A stretch of DNA of 64,000 bases from Rhodospirillales bacterium. GTDB taxonomy: Bacteria > Pseudomonadota > Alphaproteobacteria > SP197. Below the pieces are notes generated by a model. The model ran no database searches, was not told the origin of the DNA, and saw only the letters and a program-made list of their open reading frames with translations. The position numbers were made by a program, and so were the translations under genes. The DNA lies in assembly GCA_014323865.1 (NCBI GenBank), contig JACONG010000016.1:732523-796522 (forward strand). Reading direction: 5' to 3'. This document shows, in pieces, positions 6,071 to 64,000 of this stretch (its first letter is position 1; each line of letters begins with the position of its first letter).

Positions 6071-8473
6071 TCAGCCCCGGAGCTCGCCGCCCGTCTGCTT
6101 CGTGACCGCGGCAACGATCCTGGCGGAGACAGCCTCGAGTTCTTCGTCGGTCATGGTCGCCCTGGTCGGCTGCAACGTCACCGCAACGGCGAGCGACTTG
6201 CGGTTCTCGCCAAGGTTGGCACCTTCATAGAGGTCGAAGACGCTGACCTCGCGGATCAGCGCCTTGTCGGCACCCTTCACGGCGCGCACCAGCTTCCCGG
6301 CAGGCACATCGGCGTCGAGCACGAAGGCGAAATCGCGGTGGACCGGCTGGTAGGGCGAGACATCGAGTCGCGGACGCGCGACGGTCTTCGCCTTGGGTTC
6401 AGGCACGTCCTCGAACAGGATCTCGAAAGCCGCCACCGGCCCCCGGGCTTCCATGTCGGCGACGACCTGGGGGTGCAGTTCGCCGAAGGTAGCGAGCACC
6501 TTTGGCCCGAGACACAGAACACCCGAACGGCCGGGGTGGTACCAGCCCGGCGCATCCGGCAATGCCTGCAGGTTGTCGATCGGCGCTCCGATCGCTTCCA
6601 GCACGGCCAGGGCATCGGCCTTGGCGTCGAAGACATCGGCCGGACGGTCTGCCTGGTTCCAGTGACGCGGACCGGAACGGCCGACCCGCAACCCGGCAAC
6701 CGACGTCTTCTGGTCCTCTGACCCAATGCCGCCGTAGACCGGGCCGATCTCGAACAGTCCGAAGTCGGCCATGTCACGCGCTTGGTTGCGCGCAGCGGCC
6801 TGCAGCAGTGACGGAAGGCCCGAGGGACGCATCATGTCCATGTCCGACGAGATCGGATTGACAAGCGTGAGGCCCTGATTGCCGCCACCGAAATCCCATG
6901 CGGCGTCCGATGAAATGAACGAGTACGTGACCGCTTCGTTCAGACCGCGCGCCGCCAGGGTACGACGAGCCCAGCGCGACCGCTTCTGCCGCGTGGTCAG
7001 GACGGGGCGCGTGACCGCGATCTCGCGCGGCAACGAAACCATCGACACCGCGTCGAAGCCGTGGATGCGCAGGACCTCCTCGATGACGTCAGCCTCGCAC
7101 TGCATGTCGTGGCGCCATGTCGGCACCGTGACGGTCCAGCTGTCGTCACCGGCGTCCGACGTTTCGTAACCGAGGTCGGCGAGAATGGCCTCGGCGCGCA
7201 CCTTCCCGATCGCAATGCCGCCGAGGCTCTCGACTCGCGAGGGGCGCACCGCCATGGTCTGACGCTCGGTCGGGATCTCGCCGTCGCCGACGACATCGCT
7301 CGCCTCACCGCCGCAGATCTCCAGCACCAGGCGAGTGGCGATCTCCATGCCTTCGGGTGCGAAGGCGTTGTCGATGCCGCGCTCGAAGCGCTGCCGCGCA
7401 TCGGTGACAAGCTCCAGCTTGCGGCCCGTGGCTGCGGTGCGAATGGGATCGAACAGCGCGATTTCGAGGAAACCGTTCGTCGTCCCCTCGTCAGCACCCG
7501 TGGACTCGCCGCCGATCACGCCGCCCAGACCCAGCATACCGGAGTCATCGAAGATAACCGTCATCTCGCCGTCGGTTTCGTAGGTCTTGTCGTTGAGTGC
7601 ATCGAAGGTCTCGCCGGGTTCGGCGATGCGTGCACCGATCGTGCCCTTGACCTTGTCGGCGTCATAGATGTGCGCCGGACGGCCGAGATCCATGGTCAGC
7701 CAGTTGGTGATGTCGACCAGCGCCGAGATCGGCCGCAGGCCCACCGCCTTCAGCTTCTGTTGCATCCAGACGGGGCTCGGACCGTTCCTGAGGCCCTTGA
7801 AGTGGCGGCCGAGAAACGCCGGACAGGCATTCCCGTGCGCCTCGTCGAAGCGCAACTCGATGGTGATCGGGCTCTCGTGGCCACCCTTGACAGGCGACGT
7901 GTCAAGCGGCTTGAGCGTGCCGAGACCGGCCGCGGCAAGGTCGCGCGCGATGCCACGGATACTGAAACAGTCCCCGCGATCGGGCGTGATACCCATATCG
8001 AGCACGGGATCGTCGAGCCCCGCCAGAGCGGCGTAGGACGAACCGACTTCAGCATCCGCGGGCAGGTCGATGATGCCTTCATGATCGTCGGAGAGACCCA
8101 TCTCACGCTCGGAACAGAGCATGCCGCGGCTGGCGACGCCGCGAATCTCGCTCTCCTTGAGATCGACCCCGGTGCCCGGGATGTGGCTTCCGGACGGTGC
8201 GAAGACGCCCTTCATGCCGGTCCGCGCGTTGGGGGCACCACAGACAACCTGCACCTCGCCGGAGCCGGTCTCGACCATGCAGACGCGCAGGCGGTCGGCA
8301 TTGGGATGCTGTTCGGCCTTCACGACGTAGCCGACCGTGAAGGGCGCGAGCTCCTCGCTTCGGTCCTCGACCTCCTCGACCTCGAGACCGATACGGTTAA
8401 GCGCATCGACGATCTCACCGAGTGAGGCCTCGGTCTCCAGATGGCGCTTGAGCCAATCGAGCGTGATCTTCAT
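6071..8473 (-). CDS. pheT: Phenylalanyl-tRNA synthetase beta subunit
   Basis: At 800 residues it is the usual length. An N-terminal EMAP/OB tRNA-binding domain lies at about 40-150 ([10 protein letters not shown]). The B3/B4 editing region and B5 follow, then a catalytic-like core. The FDX-ACB anticodon-binding domain occupies the last 95 residues ([17 protein letters not shown]). The start overlaps the pheS stop (ATGA), so the two subunits of the alpha2-beta2 enzyme are translationally coupled. Confidence 0.97.
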
Positions 8474-58499: not shown

Positions 58500-58721
58500 C
58501 GGCGATCTGCGCAAATGTTGAATCCCGATGCGATCGGACCATGGTCAGCCAGGCCTTGCAGCGCGGCCTTGCTGTCCTCAACGCTCGGAAGCGTACCCGC
58601 CGGGATTCACCGGAGGGCGAGGCGCATTCCCGCATGATCGTCGAACCACGCCTTGCGCCGTTTCGAGGCTCTCGTCACGCATGCGCCCGATGTTGATCTG
58701 CGCCACATGCCATTTGCTCAT
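58500..58721 (-). pseudogene. DUF3291 gene remnant
   Basis: MSKWHVAQINIGRMRDE starts at 58721, overlapping the HD gene stop (ATGA). In another frame KAWFDDHAGMRLAL, an interrupting stop, then IPAGTLPSVEDSKAALQGLADHGP is the C-terminal part of DUF3291. The middle is deleted. It shows the HD operon once continued into DUF3291. Confidence 0.55.
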
Positions 58722-59305
58722 CGCGTGTGCGCGTTCACGAGCGCCGCAAGCATGGCGCGGTAGCGATTGAAGCCGGGGACATTGGCGTCGGGGGCCTTGC
58801 CCTCTTCGTCCCAGCGCCGCACGCGCACGGCGTCGGCACAGTGGGGGTGCGCGGCGAACCGCTCCGCCTCGTCCTTCTCCATCATGCCCCCCTGAAGCGA
58901 CATGGTGTGGATCGAGGCCTCCGAGAGCTTGTCGCGGTAGTCGGGCTCGACGCTGCAGAGATAGCGCTTGGCATCGACATGGAGCCCGATCGGTTCTGTC
59001 ACCGCCGCCGGGAAAAACGGTTCCAGGGCACGCGGGGCAGCACGGTCATGCCGCTTGTCGGCGACGGTTTCGTTGAGATTGTCGGGATCGGGATCGACGT
59101 AGTAACCGACGTCGTGGAGCAGCGCCGCGGCCACCAGCGCATCGGGCGCGCCGTCGCGCCGGGCGCAGGCAGCGCACTGCAGCATGTGTTCGCCGATCGT
59201 CACCTTCTCGCCCAGATAGCTCGACTCCATGATCGCCGCGAAGAGGTCGCCGAGCCGATCGATCACGTTGTCGCGGGTGAGATCGGAAAGAAGCGCCCCG
59301 GTCAT
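58718..59305 (-). CDS. HD-domain oxygenase-like protein (PhnZ/TmpB-type)
   Basis: This 195-residue HD protein has the first His in KVTIGEHMLQCAACA, the HD pair in ALLHDVGYY and additional His in KRHDRA and GLHVDAKRYLC. SLQGGMMEKDEAERF and VRRWDEEGKAPD match the PhnZ/TmpB group. Those are mixed-valence diiron oxygenases cleaving C-P bonds after a 2-oxoglutarate oxygenase has hydroxylated the substrate. The start overlaps the TauD-like stop (ATGA), fixing the pair as an operon. Substrate inferred. Confidence 0.8.
   Translation of the reverse strand: MTGALLSDLTRDNVIDRLGDLFAAIMESSYLGEKVTIGEHMLQCAACARRDGAPDALVAAALLHDVGYYVDPDPDNLNETVADKRHDRAAPRALEPFFPAAVTEPIGLHVDAKRYLCSVEPDYRDKLSEASIHTMSLQGGMMEKDEAERFAAHPHCADAVRVRRWDEEGKAPDANVPGFNRYRAMLAALVNAHTR
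58831..59050 (-). repeat. Direct-repeat copy inside the HD gene
   Basis: This 220-bp part of the HD gene reappears, strongly conserved and in the same orientation, at 60447-60664. It is the parent copy because it lies in the intact gene. Confidence 0.85.
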
Positions 59306-60405
59306 GCCGTTTCCCGTTCCAGAACGCGCAGCGTGCTCAGCAACGAGTCCTTGTCGGCGTAGCAACCCTGCAGGTGGCGGCGGCCCGATCCGCCGACGGT
59401 CTTGCGGCCGTGCAGCACACGCTGGTTGTCGACGATGAAGAGATCGCCGGGACCTGCCTTGAACGTCACCTCGAGCGCCGGGCGTTGCAGCACCTCCGCG
59501 AACCGCCGATAGGCGCGATAGAATGCCGGCATGATCCCGGGATCGAGGTCGAAAGTGCCAATCGAACGGTTGTTGAAGCGAACCTCGCGGACGTCGCCAC
59601 GGTCGTCGAGGCTGATAAGCCGGGCGCGGGTTTCGAGATGGGTGTCGGCGCTTGTGAAGCGGAACGGCACCGCATGGCCGGTCAGCAGCGCGAAGTCGGC
59701 GGGCGCTTCCTCGGCCAGCAGCCGCGCCGCCTGGAAACCGTCGACCACGACCGATTCACCGCCGTCGTTCTCGCTCACCAGGCAATGCAAGAACTGCATG
59801 CCCGGCACCGGGTCGCGATAGGGGTTGTCGGTGTGACATGAGAGACCCATCGGCGTGTAGGCGAGGTTGATCGGCTGCGGTTCCGTGCGGACCTCGAAGC
59901 AGGGCCCGTAGTTCGTCTCGCGCACGTATCCGAAACTGCGGACGACCTTCAGCAGCGTGCCGGGCTCGGTCGGAACGTTCTTCAGCAGGGTGAAGCCGAG
60001 ATCGCGCTGATCGACCAGCCAGGCCCGCCTGGACGCGCTGTCGGCAAGGGTCGCGGGCCAGTCGTGGACCGGCATCGCCTCGGCAAGGTCCGCGCCCCAC
60101 AATCGGCGTTCCGAGCCTTTCTGTCCTGCAGCGTGCTCGCGCAGCCATTCGAGACCGTAGGCCGCATGGTGGCCGTCGGGTACGAACCGCACCTGGAGCG
60201 CGCCGTATTCGCTGGTGACCTCGCCGATTGCGATGTCGGACGGCAGATCGGTGATGTCGAACAGCTTCTGGCCGTTGGCATGGCGCGCCTCTGGCGACGG
60301 CGAATTGTCGCGCAGCCAGATGGCGAACACGCGATCGCGACGTCCGTCGTCCCACTGCAGGTCCAGATGGTCACCGTTGTTGTGAAACCGGGCGAGTCCG
60401 ACCAT
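59302..60405 (-). CDS. TauD/TfdA-family Fe(II)/2-oxoglutarate dioxygenase (TmpA/gamma-butyrobetaine hydroxylase-like)
   Basis: This 367-residue protein has the N-terminal DUF971-like domain (VFAIWLRDNSP). The catalytic domain has iron ligands in SCHTDNPYRDP (HxD) and a distal His in NQRVLHGRK, with 2-oxoglutarate-binding Arg near GRRHLQGCY. It resembles gamma-butyrobetaine hydroxylase and TmpA, which hydroxylates 2-trimethylaminoethylphosphonate. The coupled HD gene supports the TmpA/TmpB reading. ATG 60405 (MVGLARF) is chosen over one five codons upstream. Confidence 0.82.
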   Translation of the reverse strand: MVGLARFHNNGDHLDLQWDDGRRDRVFAIWLRDNSPSPEARHANGQKLFDITDLPSDIAIGEVTSEYGALQVRFVPDGHHAAYGLEWLREHAAGQKGSERRLWGADLAEAMPVHDWPATLADSASRRAWLVDQRDLGFTLLKNVPTEPGTLLKVVRSFGYVRETNYGPCFEVRTEPQPINLAYTPMGLSCHTDNPYRDPVPGMQFLHCLVSENDGGESVVVDGFQAARLLAEEAPADFALLTGHAVPFRFTSADTHLETRARLISLDDRGDVREVRFNNRSIGTFDLDPGIMPAFYRAYRRFAEVLQRPALEVTFKAGPGDLFIVDNQRVLHGRKTVGGSGRRHLQGCYADKDSLLSTLRVLERETA

Positions 60406-60432
60406 GGCGTCTCTCCCCATCGGGTTGGTGTG

Positions 60433-60451
60433 GCATCATTGCGCCGCGTCG
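60433..60451. repeat. Exact 19-bp direct repeat, left copy
   Basis: GCATCATTGCGCCGCGTCG occurs here and again at 63976-63994. The two copies bracket the GTPase operon. This copy lies at the edge of the duplicated HD segment. Confidence 0.85.
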
Positions 60452-60664
60452 GCACAGTGGGGGTGCGCGGCGAACCGCTCCGCCTCGCCCTTCTCCATGA
60501 TGCCTCCCTGAAGCGACATGGTGTGGATCGAAGCCTCCGAGAGCTTGTCGTGGTCGTCGGGCTCGACGGTGCAGGGGTAACGCTTGGCATCGTCATGGAG
60601 CCCGGTCGGTTCTGTCACCGACGCCGGACGGCTCCAAGACACGCGGGGCGGCACGGTGATCATG
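60436..60664 (-). pseudogene. Duplicated fragment of the HD-domain gene
   Basis: Minus-strand residues TEPTGLHDDAKRYPC, SEASIHTMSLQGG and ERFAAHPHCADAAQ copy the C-terminal third of the HD protein encoded at 58718-59305. There is no start or HD core, and it stops at AAQ. The nucleotide match runs over 60447-60664. Confidence 0.85.
60447..60664 (-). repeat. Direct-repeat copy upstream of the dioxygenase gene
   Basis: This second copy of the 220-bp HD segment shows scattered substitutions and a two-base length difference. The two copies are in direct orientation and flank the dioxygenase gene, consistent with tandem duplication followed by decay. Confidence 0.85.
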
Positions 60665-60688
60665 GGCCCGCACCGTTTTACCCTCATA

Positions 60689-61729
60689 CTACAATACCCA
60701 GTCCACCACAAGAATCATGCCCACCACGACGAACATTACCATGGCAAAAATGAGAATGGCGCGCATCCAGGGTTTTCTCTTTCTCTTTCGCCAAAAATTG
60801 CGGAATGAGCGCAAAAATTCGTCGAACACATGGGGCTGATTTTGCTCATCCGCGTCATCCGGTGTCACATCGCCATGCCTTGATGTGTATGCGAAACGAT
60901 CAAGATGACCATCGACGTGATCAACGTGATCAAGTCGGTCATTGACGTTGTCGATCTCTTTCACCAAGTCCTCCACTATCTCCTCCAATGCATTGATCCG
61001 GTCCCGGAGGTTCCCCGTCCCGGATCCCTGCGGTGTTTTCGCTGGGGAGCTTGCGGTGGATGATGCCTGACTCCTCGCCTTATCGAAGGCGGAGATGGAC
61101 CGGAGCACCCTTTCGTCATCAAGAGGCACCGAGTTTGGGGTCGGTTCTTTGAAGACCAGAAGCGTTTCGTGAGAGCCGGCATACTCGAACGTAAGCGCCT
61201 GAAGTATTTTCGGCACCTCGTCTTCCTGCTCGGCACAGGACAGGTGAAACTCCAGAACCTGCCCTTCGACGACCTGCCATTGTGCCGGGCGCTCCTGCAC
61301 ATCCTGCTGGATGATGCTCCGCCATTCAAGAATCCTGTTGTCCGTAACGAGTTCCCTCGCATGGTCCATGAGGGTGTTGACGGGCCCCTCGATCTTGGAC
61401 CAGTCAGTACAGATGACACTGTCGCGGGGATTATCAATCTGGACCGCAACCGCCACGCCGAAAAAGCCTGGTCGACTCTGCACATCACGGCACGGAGAGA
61501 TGGCACCGAACAGATTGATTGCCTTGCGGAGCCGGACGTTCTGAAGTCTGCGGGCGAAGAACGCGGTTTCACCTTCGCGGATATGATGATGGATTACGCC
61601 GTCGTGCTGACGGTCAAATTCATAACAGTGAACAGGCACCCTGGAGAGAATGCCGTTGCCCTGCACCTTGAGGCCACGCTCCGTCCCGAATATGACTTCT
61701 CCCTGGATTGTTGTCTCGGTGGCCATCAT
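60689..61729 (-). CDS. Unknown protein: N-terminal soluble domain, coiled coil and C-terminal membrane anchor
   Basis: This 346-residue protein overlaps the GTPase stop (ATGA), so translation is coupled. Residues 1-205 form a compact domain (IFGTERGLKVQGNGILSRVP, then SRPGFFGVAVAVQ) I cannot assign; weak likeness to GTPase-associated N-terminal domains is only an impression. A Ser/Thr/Pro linker (about 225-245) and a coiled coil (NLRDRINALEEIVEDLVKEI) follow, then a His/Asp-rich stretch. A basic collar (WRKRKRKPW) precedes a final helix (MRAILIFAMVMFVVVGMIL). This predicts a tail-anchored cytosolic protein. Confidence 0.7.
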   Translation of the reverse strand: MMATETTIQGEVIFGTERGLKVQGNGILSRVPVHCYEFDRQHDGVIHHHIREGETAFFARRLQNVRLRKAINLFGAISPCRDVQSRPGFFGVAVAVQIDNPRDSVICTDWSKIEGPVNTLMDHARELVTDNRILEWRSIIQQDVQERPAQWQVVEGQVLEFHLSCAEQEDEVPKILQALTFEYAGSHETLLVFKEPTPNSVPLDDERVLRSISAFDKARSQASSTASSPAKTPQGSGTGNLRDRINALEEIVEDLVKEIDNVNDRLDHVDHVDGHLDRFAYTSRHGDVTPDDADEQNQPHVFDEFLRSFRNFWRKRKRKPWMRAILIFAMVMFVVVGMILVVDWVL

Positions 61730-62715
61730 TTCCAACGATTGACACGCCCCAGAATCCGCTGAAACAGGGTTGGCCCCGGCCGCTTGCCCTCGAATTGTTC
61801 GATCAGCCAGAACAATATCTCTTCAATATGCCTGAAAGACGGCTTAACGAGTCGCAGTTCTCCGCCGCTCATGTCAAGCTCGCCAAGATGGAGGGGCGAC
61901 AGGAGTGTCTTTTTGGGCTCCGGCCAATGATCCCAGATCTGGTAGGTCTCACCACAGAATCTGTTCAAGTAGTCCAGCAGCGCATCTTTGTCAAGCTTGT
62001 CATAGACGGTTTGCCCGTCGCTTGCTCCAAACTCCCGCAGACGCTCAAGGGACTCTTTCGGTTTAGAGATGACGACCGCAAGCGAGATGCGGTCCAGCAA
62101 GCCCCGGAAATTTTTTTTCAGGTATGTCATGAAGGACGCGAAGAGCTTGTCGTTTTCCTCGATATCGGGGCTCAGCATCAGAACGACACAAAACCTGAGG
62201 TTGGGATTGTCCAGATAAGCGTGCAGAAGAGGCGCCATGACCGGTGGCGGAGCGCCGGGTTTTACCAGAACCTCCTGCAATAGCTCTCCCGACATCTCGA
62301 GAAAGCCGAACTTTGAATGTATTTTCCTCCCGTTTGTTGTACGGGTATCGATCATGACCTCGCGCACGGCGTTTTCGCCAGTGGCATTCGGGTCCGGCAA
62401 CCGGCCTTCGATCCACTGGTCTTTCCACATATTGATGATGGCCCTGCCTTCCCAGTCCTGACCTTCAGGCCCATCAGGAACCGATATTTCCGTCCGGAAG
62501 GGACCTTCATTCATCAAGTAGTTCATCAACATCCATTGAAAGGTGGTTTTTCCGGAACCGGGGAACCCGAAAGAGAAAATGTAATTGCCGGACTTCTTCG
62601 CTCTGATATCGTCAATCGCAAGGCCATCCCTCTGCTTGGGACGGTAGCGCTTGATTTCATCGATACGATTGGGGAAAGAGGTGCCCTGGTTCATTTTCTG
62701 GTCCATGGTCGTCAC
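61726..62715 (-). CDS. P-loop GTPase with atypical switch motifs (double-GTPase-like)
   Basis: This 329-residue protein opens with GTG; an ATG three codons in is possible. Walker A GFPGSGKTT lies near 50-58. WIEGRLPDPNAT precedes a strand ending in FLEMSGE near 140, which sits where DxxG normally lies. LAVVISKPKE near 215 sits in the NKxD position. The layout resembles bacterial double-GTPase-type NTPases of conflict systems rather than translation or Ras GTPases. No second full P-loop is visible. It is coupled to the membrane and anchor proteins around it. Confidence 0.7.
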   Translation of the reverse strand: MTTMDQKMNQGTSFPNRIDEIKRYRPKQRDGLAIDDIRAKKSGNYIFSFGFPGSGKTTFQWMLMNYLMNEGPFRTEISVPDGPEGQDWEGRAIINMWKDQWIEGRLPDPNATGENAVREVMIDTRTTNGRKIHSKFGFLEMSGELLQEVLVKPGAPPPVMAPLLHAYLDNPNLRFCVVLMLSPDIEENDKLFASFMTYLKKNFRGLLDRISLAVVISKPKESLERLREFGASDGQTVYDKLDKDALLDYLNRFCGETYQIWDHWPEPKKTLLSPLHLGELDMSGGELRLVKPSFRHIEEILFWLIEQFEGKRPGPTLFQRILGRVNRWK

Positions 62716-62720
62716 TTGTC

Positions 62721-63764
62721 CTAGCCGTCGATGACGCGGCGCTTGCCGCCGCCACGCGGTGTGGCGGGCTTTGCGTCACGTTCGAGCCGACCGCGGCCGA
62801 AGAGGGCAAAAGACAGAAGCAGGGGCAGAACGTCGGTGACAGAAGCAAGGACGAGGGAAACCCATGTCGCAAGCGGGTTCGGCATTTCGCCGAAGCCATT
62901 CTGGAAGGCATAAACAATTTCACCCAAGCGACCGAGGCCCGGATCAATCTTCTGATGGGAGACGGCCTCATCTTCAGGCAGAAGGGCGTTCGCCGCGCGC
63001 TCGACGTCAAGGGAAATCGTGGATATCTCGCCGAGAGCATCCAGCCCGCCTTTTGTCAAGAGAACCCGCTCCGGGCTGTCGTATTCGAGAAGTGTCGCAT
63101 CAATGAGGCGAACAAGGTTTTCGATTGCCGGGGCTGCGGTCGTTTCGAGCGTAACACTCAGGATATCCTCAGCGGCCGCGCTGTAACGGGCATACCAATC
63201 ATTGACCAAGGCCATGTCTGATCCGATCCCCGGAACGGCCAGATTGGTGATCTCACGCCCGAGAATGCGCTCAATTCGCTCCATATGCAAGCGACATTCC
63301 TGGCCGCAGCCGGGGCGTAGCGGATCGTTGATTTGATCCCGGAGGTTCTCGATCTCGACCCGGAGATCCGTTTCCAGAGCACGGGCGAAAGACAGTTCTT
63401 CCATGCCATCGAGGGATGCCCGTGTCATGACGAGGTCGTCCCGGAAGACCGCGAGTTTCTCGGTGACCGTGCTCTCCGTCACGTCTTCGCGCATGAAATT
63501 GGAATAGAGGAAGTTGAAGTTGGACGCGATCGAGAAGAATGCCGCCACCATCCAGATGAACAGAGGCAGAAGGAAGCGCCGCTCGGTGGACCGGAAATAG
63601 CTGATCGTGGCATCCATCATCAGGATGATCATCATCAGCAGAACCACCAGGGGCAATGTAATCTCGCCTGCTGTGCGCAACAGGCCTCCATAGGAAAGAT
63701 AGCCTGAGATGCCCACCGCCAGAAAGAGTGTGAGCGCGTAAGCTGGAACCAGGAGAGTGGTCAA
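62721..63764 (-). CDS. Four-helix membrane protein with large periplasmic domain
   Basis: This 347-residue protein starts at TTG 63764 with GGAGG six bases upstream, overlapping the previous stop (TTGA). Helices lie at about 8-26, 35-55, 64-84 and 301-321. Basic segments FRSTERRF and the GGGKRR tail place both ends in the cytosol, so residues 88-298 face the periplasm. That loop is helical and acidic with a Cys pair (GCGQECRLH). The topology suits a sensor or receptor for the downstream GTPase. Family not recognised. Confidence 0.7.
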   Translation of the reverse strand: MTTLLVPAYALTLFLAVGISGYLSYGGLLRTAGEITLPLVVLLMMIILMMDATISYFRSTERRFLLPLFIWMVAAFFSIASNFNFLYSNFMREDVTESTVTEKLAVFRDDLVMTRASLDGMEELSFARALETDLRVEIENLRDQINDPLRPGCGQECRLHMERIERILGREITNLAVPGIGSDMALVNDWYARYSAAAEDILSVTLETTAAPAIENLVRLIDATLLEYDSPERVLLTKGGLDALGEISTISLDVERAANALLPEDEAVSHQKIDPGLGRLGEIVYAFQNGFGEMPNPLATWVSLVLASVTDVLPLLLSFALFGRGRLERDAKPATPRGGGKRRVIDG

Positions 63765-64000
63765 TTCATTCCTCCAAACATACCATGCTGACCAATTCCG
63801 ACTATAGGCACTCTCGCAACGTGGTTGAACAGGGTTTCGTGAAAAATTGCGATGACCGTGCCCGCCAACCGGAATCCAGAAGCCGGACCGCCCGCCATAT
63901 TGCCGGACAAAGACGCCAGTCCATTCCGGGCCACATGGCTGGAACCGGCCCTGTCCTTCACCATCGTGTCGATGTGCATCATTGCGCCGCGTCGTTCGTG
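63761..64000 (-). CDS. C-terminal part of an unknown protein, open at window edge
   Basis: The frame is open from the right edge (HERRGAMMHIDTMVKDRAG...) and ends GIGQHGMFGGMN. Two ATGs lie inside the 19-bp repeat, so a 73-residue protein starting at 63982 is possible, but no ribosome site is visible and a longer gene is more likely. No motif recognised. Its stop overlaps the membrane-protein start, making it the first visible gene of the operon. Confidence 0.5.
   Translation of the reverse strand, partial: HERRGAMMHIDTMVKDRAGSSHVARNGLASLSGNMAGGPASGFRLAGTVIAIFHETLFNHVARVPIVGIGQHGMFGGMN
63976..63994. repeat. Exact 19-bp direct repeat, right copy
   Basis: This copy is identical to 60433-60451. 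It lies within or just upstream of the coding part of the first operon gene. Confidence 0.85.

What the first reader, a model, noticed from the sequence alone, without database searches (positions are those of the whole stretch)
60689..64000. Membrane-linked GTPase operon of unknown function
At least four coupled minus-strand genes (all junctions overlap or are within 6 bp) encode an unknown C-terminal fragment, a 4-helix protein with a 210-residue periplasmic loop, a P-loop GTPase and a tail-anchored coiled-coil protein. Composition is visibly lower in GC than the flanking genes. None belongs to a metabolic family. The combination of receptor-like membrane protein, switch NTPase and anchored partner suggests envelope sensing or a conflict/defence system of the GTPase-associated type.
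Basis: partly seen in the sequence, partly recalled or inferred. Interest (0 to 1): 0.78.

Follow-up and report, generated by a model that had tools for sequence, protein, structure and literature searches.

The report
Rare three-gene membrane GTPase-like cassette
A rare, horizontally acquired set of three coupled bacterial genes (a four-helix membrane protein, a nucleotide-switch protein distantly like the "double GTPases" of predicted bacterial immune systems, and a membrane-anchored partner) looks like a stripped-down relative of those predicted systems, but no function has been shown.

Summary
The operon is real but has three genes, not four. On the minus strand: P3 (347 aa, 4 TM, ~207-residue periplasmic loop), P2 (329 aa P-loop NTPase), P1 (348 aa, C-terminal tail anchor). 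The same trio, in the same order and with the same ATGA overlap between P2 and P1, lies in an unrelated place (miaB/ybeZ) in a Rhodobacteraceae MAG. All three genes are under purifying selection (dN/dS 0.19, 0.20, 0.41). The window copy is an insertion: a relative has tmpA and the sulfatase 148 bp apart, against 3.65 kb here, with a duplicated leader at both edges. P2 is best read as a distant double-GTPase (DO-GTPase): HHalign aligns 112-124 columns from P-loop to the "GE" switch motif, 0/200 shuffles reach the score, and ordinary GTPases and ABC ATPases align only at the P-loop. P1 sits where GAP1 sits, but its similarity to GAP1-N is suggestive only. GASH, GAP1-M/C, a second GTPase and known effectors are absent. 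Best reading: a compact membrane-tethered DO-GTPase-like switch cassette, probably a conflict/defence module. Function is inferred.

The parts
60689..61735 (-). P1: tail-anchored protein, 348 aa (ATG 61729 likely start): conserved, probably beta-rich N-terminal ~210 aa, linker and coiled coil, C-terminal TM (326-344)
61726..62715 (-). P2: P-loop NTPase, 329 aa, GFPGSGKTTF Walker A, FLEMSGE switch motif; DO-GTPase-like
62721..63764 (-). P3: 4-TM membrane protein, 347 aa, TTG start with GGAGGA upstream; ~207-aa extracytoplasmic loop with CxxxC; basic cytoplasmic tail
63765..63957 (-). Upstream region of the cassette (putative promoter; no sigma-70 match above chance)
63958..63994 (-). Right junction: duplicate of the tmpA leader (38 nt, 87% to 60414-60451; 19 nt identical), on the sulfatase side of the insert
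60414..60451 (-). Left junction: original tmpA leader, partner of the right direct repeat
60446..60660 (-). tmpB fragment, 90% identical to the resident tmpB at 58830-59049, between the cassette and the tmpA leader: scar of a tandem duplication
63761..64000 (-).

Best explanation
A horizontally acquired, self-contained three-gene cassette that encodes a membrane-tethered nucleotide switch, most likely a compact offshoot of the DO-GTPase/GAP1 type of predicted conflict systems. Shown: gene order, translational coupling, selection on all three proteins, insertion at two unrelated sites, and profile similarity of P2 to DO-GTPases. Inferred: P2 cycles between nucleotide states. P1, anchored in the inner membrane by its tail with its N-terminal domain in the cytoplasm, stands in for GAP1: it reads the trigger (it is the fastest-evolving part) and holds P2 at the membrane. 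P3, the most conserved part and the only possible output module, is the membrane effector (a gated pore or permeabiliser) or a fixed envelope sensor. On infection or envelope damage, P1 would release P2's brake and P2 would switch P3, arresting the cell. The effector role of P3 (about 0.5) is only slightly preferred over sensor (about 0.4).
For: P2 against a DO-GTPase1 profile built here: HHalign probability 89%, E 2.3e-6, 112 columns from P-loop to the GE motif. Against DO-GTPase2: E 1.9e-5, 124 columns, including a shared W-x-x-G-x-x-P stretch. Era-type GTPases (22 columns), ABC ATPases (38 columns) and YcjX (36 columns) match only at the P-loop; 0 of 200 column shuffles reach either DO-GTPase score. 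Pfam hits to both DO-GTPase families are in register but below cut-off. The P1 gene follows directly downstream of the GTPase gene, as GAP1 genes do in L010 and L014-L025. P1 N-terminus against GAP1-N1: score 19.3, 0 of 200 shuffles, in register, but only 21 columns. Conserved trio at an unrelated site in L004. dN/dS 0.19/0.20/0.41. Found in 1 of 16 genomes of its family. Empty site in G004, and flanking repeats.
Against: No curated family model is passed. The P2 profile rests on two sequences. Its usual Asp of DxxG is Glu (EMSG), and its G4 equivalent (SKPK/SKPE) is not canonical, so GTP preference is not established. P1/GAP1-N similarity is not significant by E-value (0.014 in a single comparison). 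No GASH, second GTPase or recognisable effector. Neither insertion site is a clear defence island. Both structure predictions are too poor to use (mean pLDDT 34-35).
Confidence: 0.5

Rival explanations
1. An envelope-homeostasis module: P3 senses membrane or periplasmic stress through its extracytoplasmic loop and signals through P2 and P1, with no role in conflict (as DO-GTPase-family genes next to PspF operons are thought to act in membrane stress).
For: P1 and P3 are tied to the inner membrane; the P3 loop is well conserved (71%) with a paired Cys motif; DO-GTPase-family genes occur with PspF operons (PMC11237479).
Against: Sporadic and acquired by insertion at unrelated sites, absent from 15 of 16 family genomes, so not a standing homeostasis function; no stress genes recognised next to either copy.
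Confidence: 0.25
2. A membrane AAA/STAND/ABC-like ATPase complex (transport or polysaccharide-type) in which P2 is an ATPase and P3 a permease; the GTPase reading is wrong.
For: The best single Pfam hit is the P-loop of nSTAND3 (E 0.005-0.014, about 27 residues), and ABC ATPases score well at the P-loop. P2 lacks a canonical NKxD.
Against: Those matches cover only the P-loop, whereas DO-GTPase profiles align through the following ~80 residues; the low-confidence model gives the hairpin-then-GE order of TRAFAC GTPases, for what it is worth.
Confidence: 0.15
3. Passenger genes of a mobile element without a host-level role.
For: Insertion footprint and low GC; L004 P2 is frame-broken and carries a 66-nt repeat expansion.
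Against: No transposase, integrase or relaxase in the insert; purifying selection on all three proteins.
Confidence: 0.1

Closest known systems
DO-GTPase / GAP1-N1 system (Kaur et al. 2020, PMC7159879; Pfam PF19975, PF19993, PF20012, PF19994)
   Same: P-loop protein with the GE switch motif and profile-level similarity; gene directly downstream in the GAP1 position; coupled operon, sporadic in Proteobacteria
   Different: One P-loop gene rather than two, no Zn ribbon, no GASH, no GAP1-M/C length (348 aa against about 600-880 aa), no metallophosphoesterase/TIR/EAD effector; P1 and P3 are membrane proteins
DO-GTPase / GAP1-N2 system (same paper; PF20013)
   Same: Membrane ties: GAP1 with C-terminal TMs and multi-TM partners are described there
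   Different: PF20013 has no match in G000 or in a scan of P1; no FNIII component; that type is mainly found outside Proteobacteria. No GAP1-N2 sequences were available for a profile-profile test
YcjX (DUF463) / PspF-associated DO-GTPase family
   Same: P-loop region aligns (36 columns)
   Different: No alignment beyond the P-loop; different gene company

Membership tests
DO-GTPase/GAP1 systems | TRAFAC P-loop GTPase of the DO-GTPase family with conserved Glu in Walker B (G-E) | tested here: inconclusive
   Profile-profile similarity is real (E 2e-6 / 2e-5, 0 of 200 shuffles) but Pfam scores (11-13 bits) are below the 27-bit cut-off; GTP specificity unknown
DO-GTPase/GAP1 systems | Three-domain GAP1 (N, M, C) encoded downstream of the GTPase | tested here: not met
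   P1 is 348 aa with no GAP1 hit; position fits; N-terminal similarity in register but weak
DO-GTPase/GAP1 systems (N1 type) | GASH all-helical protein | tested here: not met
   No Pfam hit to GASH in P3 or P1; HHalign of P3 to GASH at noise
DO-GTPase/GAP1 systems (N1 type) | Two DO-GTPase genes, one with a Zn ribbon | tested here: not met
   One P-loop gene, no Zn ribbon in it; the upstream gene is P3
DO-GTPase/GAP1 systems | Variable effector component | tested here: not met
   Same three genes in both copies, no recognised effector domain; P3 could be an unrecognised membrane effector
DO-GTPase/GAP1-N2 systems | GAP1-N2 domain and FNIII-repeat protein | tested here: not met
   No PF20013 match in P1 or in G000; no FNIII hit in the trio. 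Only HMM scans, no profile-profile test
Anti-phage defence system in general | Protection from phage | not testable with these tools
   Needs the experiment
Anti-phage defence system in general | Location in a defence neighbourhood | tested here: inconclusive
   Direct neighbours are metabolic or housekeeping at both sites; an MTase-HNH protein and a TnpB/Cas12-like gene with a CRISPR-like array lie about 8-14 kb away

The most novel reading that the evidence does not exclude
A previously undescribed minimal conflict system in which a single DO-GTPase-like switch, a GAP1-like adaptor moved onto the membrane by a tail anchor, and a dedicated four-TM membrane effector make up the whole machine, replacing GASH, the second GTPase and the exchangeable effectors.
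Probability: 0.3. Interest if true: 0.7.

Novelty: new variant of a known kind. Interest (0 to 1): 0.5.

Why it matters
If right, this is a very small version of a predicted immune-type GTPase switch: three genes with no optional parts, which would make it a tractable model for testing how DO-GTPase/GAP1 pairs sense and fire, a question so far resting on genomic prediction (PMC7159879). It would also add a membrane output to that group.

Tried and rejected
(1) Whole-family search for relatives: pattern scan of 84,980 species genomes (one hit, L004), 385 class genomes, 388-398 phylum genomes with two- or three-row profiles, plasmids and viral contigs: no further relative; the borderline hits (L029-L033) were P-loop-only or short chance matches. 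(2) Structure prediction of P2 (single sequence) and the P1 N-terminal domain (two sequences): mean pLDDT 34-35, so no fold search was run. (3) PADLOC 'mad8' hit of P2 (E 6.5e-4): not reproduced with the L004 homologue pieces and judged a P-loop match. (4) GP41, synaptobrevin, LapA and DUF3604 hits of P1: below cut-offs, attributed to coiled-coil/TM composition or chance. (5) A query written as a rough GAP1-N2 consensus from memory found nothing in plasmids and is not used; attempts to reach actinobacterial genomes for GAP1-N2 sequences were not possible. (6) Sigma-70 promoter and terminator scan: no more than chance. (7) Flanking direct repeats around the L004 copy: none found beyond coding repeats.

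Full report
WHAT IS THERE. The right-hand edge of the window carries three minus-strand genes: P3 (62721-63764, 347 aa), P2 (61726-62715, 329 aa) and P1 (60689-61735, 348 aa). The P3/P2 gap is 5 bp. The P2 stop and the P1 start overlap as ATGA, and the relative L004 shows the same ATGA overlap. GC is 0.554 against about 0.65 on both sides, and third-position GC is 0.65-0.69 against 0.80-0.82 in the neighbouring tmpA/tmpB.

THE FOURTH GENE IS NOT A GENE. Extending the contig to the right shows that the frame ending at 63761 opens at window-equivalent 64333, antisense to a sulfatase whose start is at 64069. It crosses the insertion junction described below, and L004 has no similarity upstream of P3.

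THE UNIT IS CONSERVED AND MOBILE. A scan of one genome for each of 84,980 species gave one relative, L004, a Rhodobacteraceae MAG; that scan finds close relatives only. There the same three genes in the same order sit between miaB and a phoH/ybeZ gene (gene names read from the protein sequences and the familiar miaB-ybeZ-ybeY-lnt order; established knowledge, not tested). Identity is 76% (P3), about 70% (P2) and 43% (P1; 49% for its N-terminal 210 residues). The L004 P2 is broken by one frame change and has a 66-nt coding repeat at its N-terminus; its two pieces were compared apart. Nei-Gojobori dN/dS is 0.19 for P3, 0.20-0.21 for the two parts of P2 and 0.41 for P1, so all three are real proteins under constraint and P1 evolves fastest. 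The other 15 genomes of the family lack the cassette, as do 384 other genomes of the class for P2 and nearly 400 of the phylum for P2 and for P3.

HOW IT GOT HERE. In relative G004 (L097), tmpA and the sulfatase are divergent neighbours 148 bp apart; in the window 3.65 kb separate them. A 38-nt stretch of the tmpA leader occurs at both edges of the insert (60414-60451 and 63958-63994; 87% identical, 19 nt exact). The right copy keeps the ancestral sequence on the sulfatase side, and the left copy keeps the tmpA side. Between P1 and tmpA lies a 215-nt fragment of tmpB, 90% identical to the resident gene. The simplest history is a tandem duplication of leader-tmpA-tmpB with most of one copy replaced by the cassette (inference). 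The acquired part is then about 60661-63957: three genes and 190 bp upstream. This independently gives three genes as the unit. In G003 the same tmpA-sulfatase interval holds unrelated genes.

WHAT THE PROTEINS ARE. P2 has a Walker A motif GFPGSGKTTF and a later FLEMSGE. It passes no curated model, but Pfam DO-GTPase1 and DO-GTPase2 both hit in register (E 0.055 and 0.31). I collected canonical systems (L010, L014-L025), built profiles, and compared them by HHalign. P2 aligns with DO-GTPase1 over 112 columns (E 2.3e-6) and DO-GTPase2 over 124 columns (E 1.9e-5), from P-loop to the GE motif, including a W-x-x-G-x-x-P stretch with DO-GTPase2. Era-type GTPases, ABC ATPases and YcjX align only at the P-loop (22, 38 and 36 columns). 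None of 200 column shuffles reaches either DO-GTPase score. Two cautions: the Asp of DxxG is Glu here, and the G4-like SKPK/SKPE is not canonical, so GTP use is not established. P1 has a conserved N-terminal region (beta-rich in a low-confidence model), a coiled coil and a tail anchor. Its position directly after the GTPase gene is that of GAP1. Its N-terminal motif order (FGTERGL ... R-x-GF-x-G-x-AVAV-x-ID) resembles GAP1-N1 (GYxxGH ... RPGxVxTHxLLI), but the HHalign match covers only 21 columns (score 19.3; shuffles mean 11.4, maximum 18.4). I rate it suggestive. P3 has three N-terminal TMs, a 207-residue acidic loop with CGQEC and a fourth TM with a basic tail, which by the positive-inside rule puts both ends in the cytoplasm. 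No family is known for it.

MECHANISM. Shown: order, coupling, constraint, mobility, distant DO-GTPase relationship of P2. Inferred: P2 is the switch; P1 tethers and regulates it from the cytoplasmic face of the membrane; P3 is either the membrane effector or an envelope sensor. I lean to effector because it is the most conserved protein (loop 71%, TMs 83-84%) and because DO-GTPase systems need an output component that is otherwise missing; P1, at dN/dS 0.41, is the better candidate for the part that faces a changing trigger. This is a preference, not a result.

COMPARISON WITH WHAT IS KNOWN. Kaur et al. (PMC7159879) define the GAP1-N1 type by GAP1, GASH and two DO-GTPases with variable effectors; the 12 systems whose genes were located here show the order effector-GASH-GTPase-GTPase-GAP1, one (L018) with an EAD1 effector in place of the metallophosphoesterase, and L024 is interrupted by an IS30 element (L015 has no annotation and was not used). 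The cassette lacks GASH, GAP1-M/C, the second GTPase and the effectors, so it is not filed as a member. It works, at most, like one. No experimental test of this group was found in the papers searched.

NOVELTY. I rate it a new variant of a known kind, on the strength of P2. If P2's relationship is refuted the trio would be an orphan system.

Noticed in passing
L002:13914-15724 (G000:C16:808913-810723), about 12-14 kb right of the window's end: A TnpB/Cas12-like gene (PADLOC best match Cas12u4 2.6e-67; NCBIfam guided_TnpB 2e-75) directly next to a CRISPR-like array: six identical 36-nt repeats and one decayed terminal repeat with unique ~30-nt spacers. The ORF runs on into the array. A candidate TnpB-like type V system worth its own look.
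   Followed up: partly
L002:9517-11304 (minus): DNA adenine methyltransferase fused to an HNH domain similar to that of IscB/Cas9, about 8-10 kb right of the window.
   Followed up: partly
window 58718-60420 and 60446-60660: tmpA/tmpB (2-trimethylaminoethylphosphonate catabolism; NCBIfam; tmpB is below its equivalog cut-off) with a 215-nt tmpB fragment duplicated upstream, the scar of a tandem duplication.
   Followed up: yes
L004:7797-8030: In-frame 66-nt (22-aa) repeats extend the N-terminus of the L004 P2 homologue, which also has a frame change near 8300.
   Followed up: no
L098:2985-7110: In G003 the same tmpA-sulfatase interval holds a different insert (an ABC substrate-binding protein, a TauD-like dioxygenase and a TetR-type regulator by inspection), so the interval may be a recurrent insertion place.
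   Followed up: no
L024 (Aliivibrio salmonicida plasmid pVSAL840): A canonical DO-GTPase/GAP1-N1 system, interrupted by an IS30 transposase gene, lies directly next to RADAR (rdrA/rdrB), which supports the defence reading of that family.
   Followed up: no
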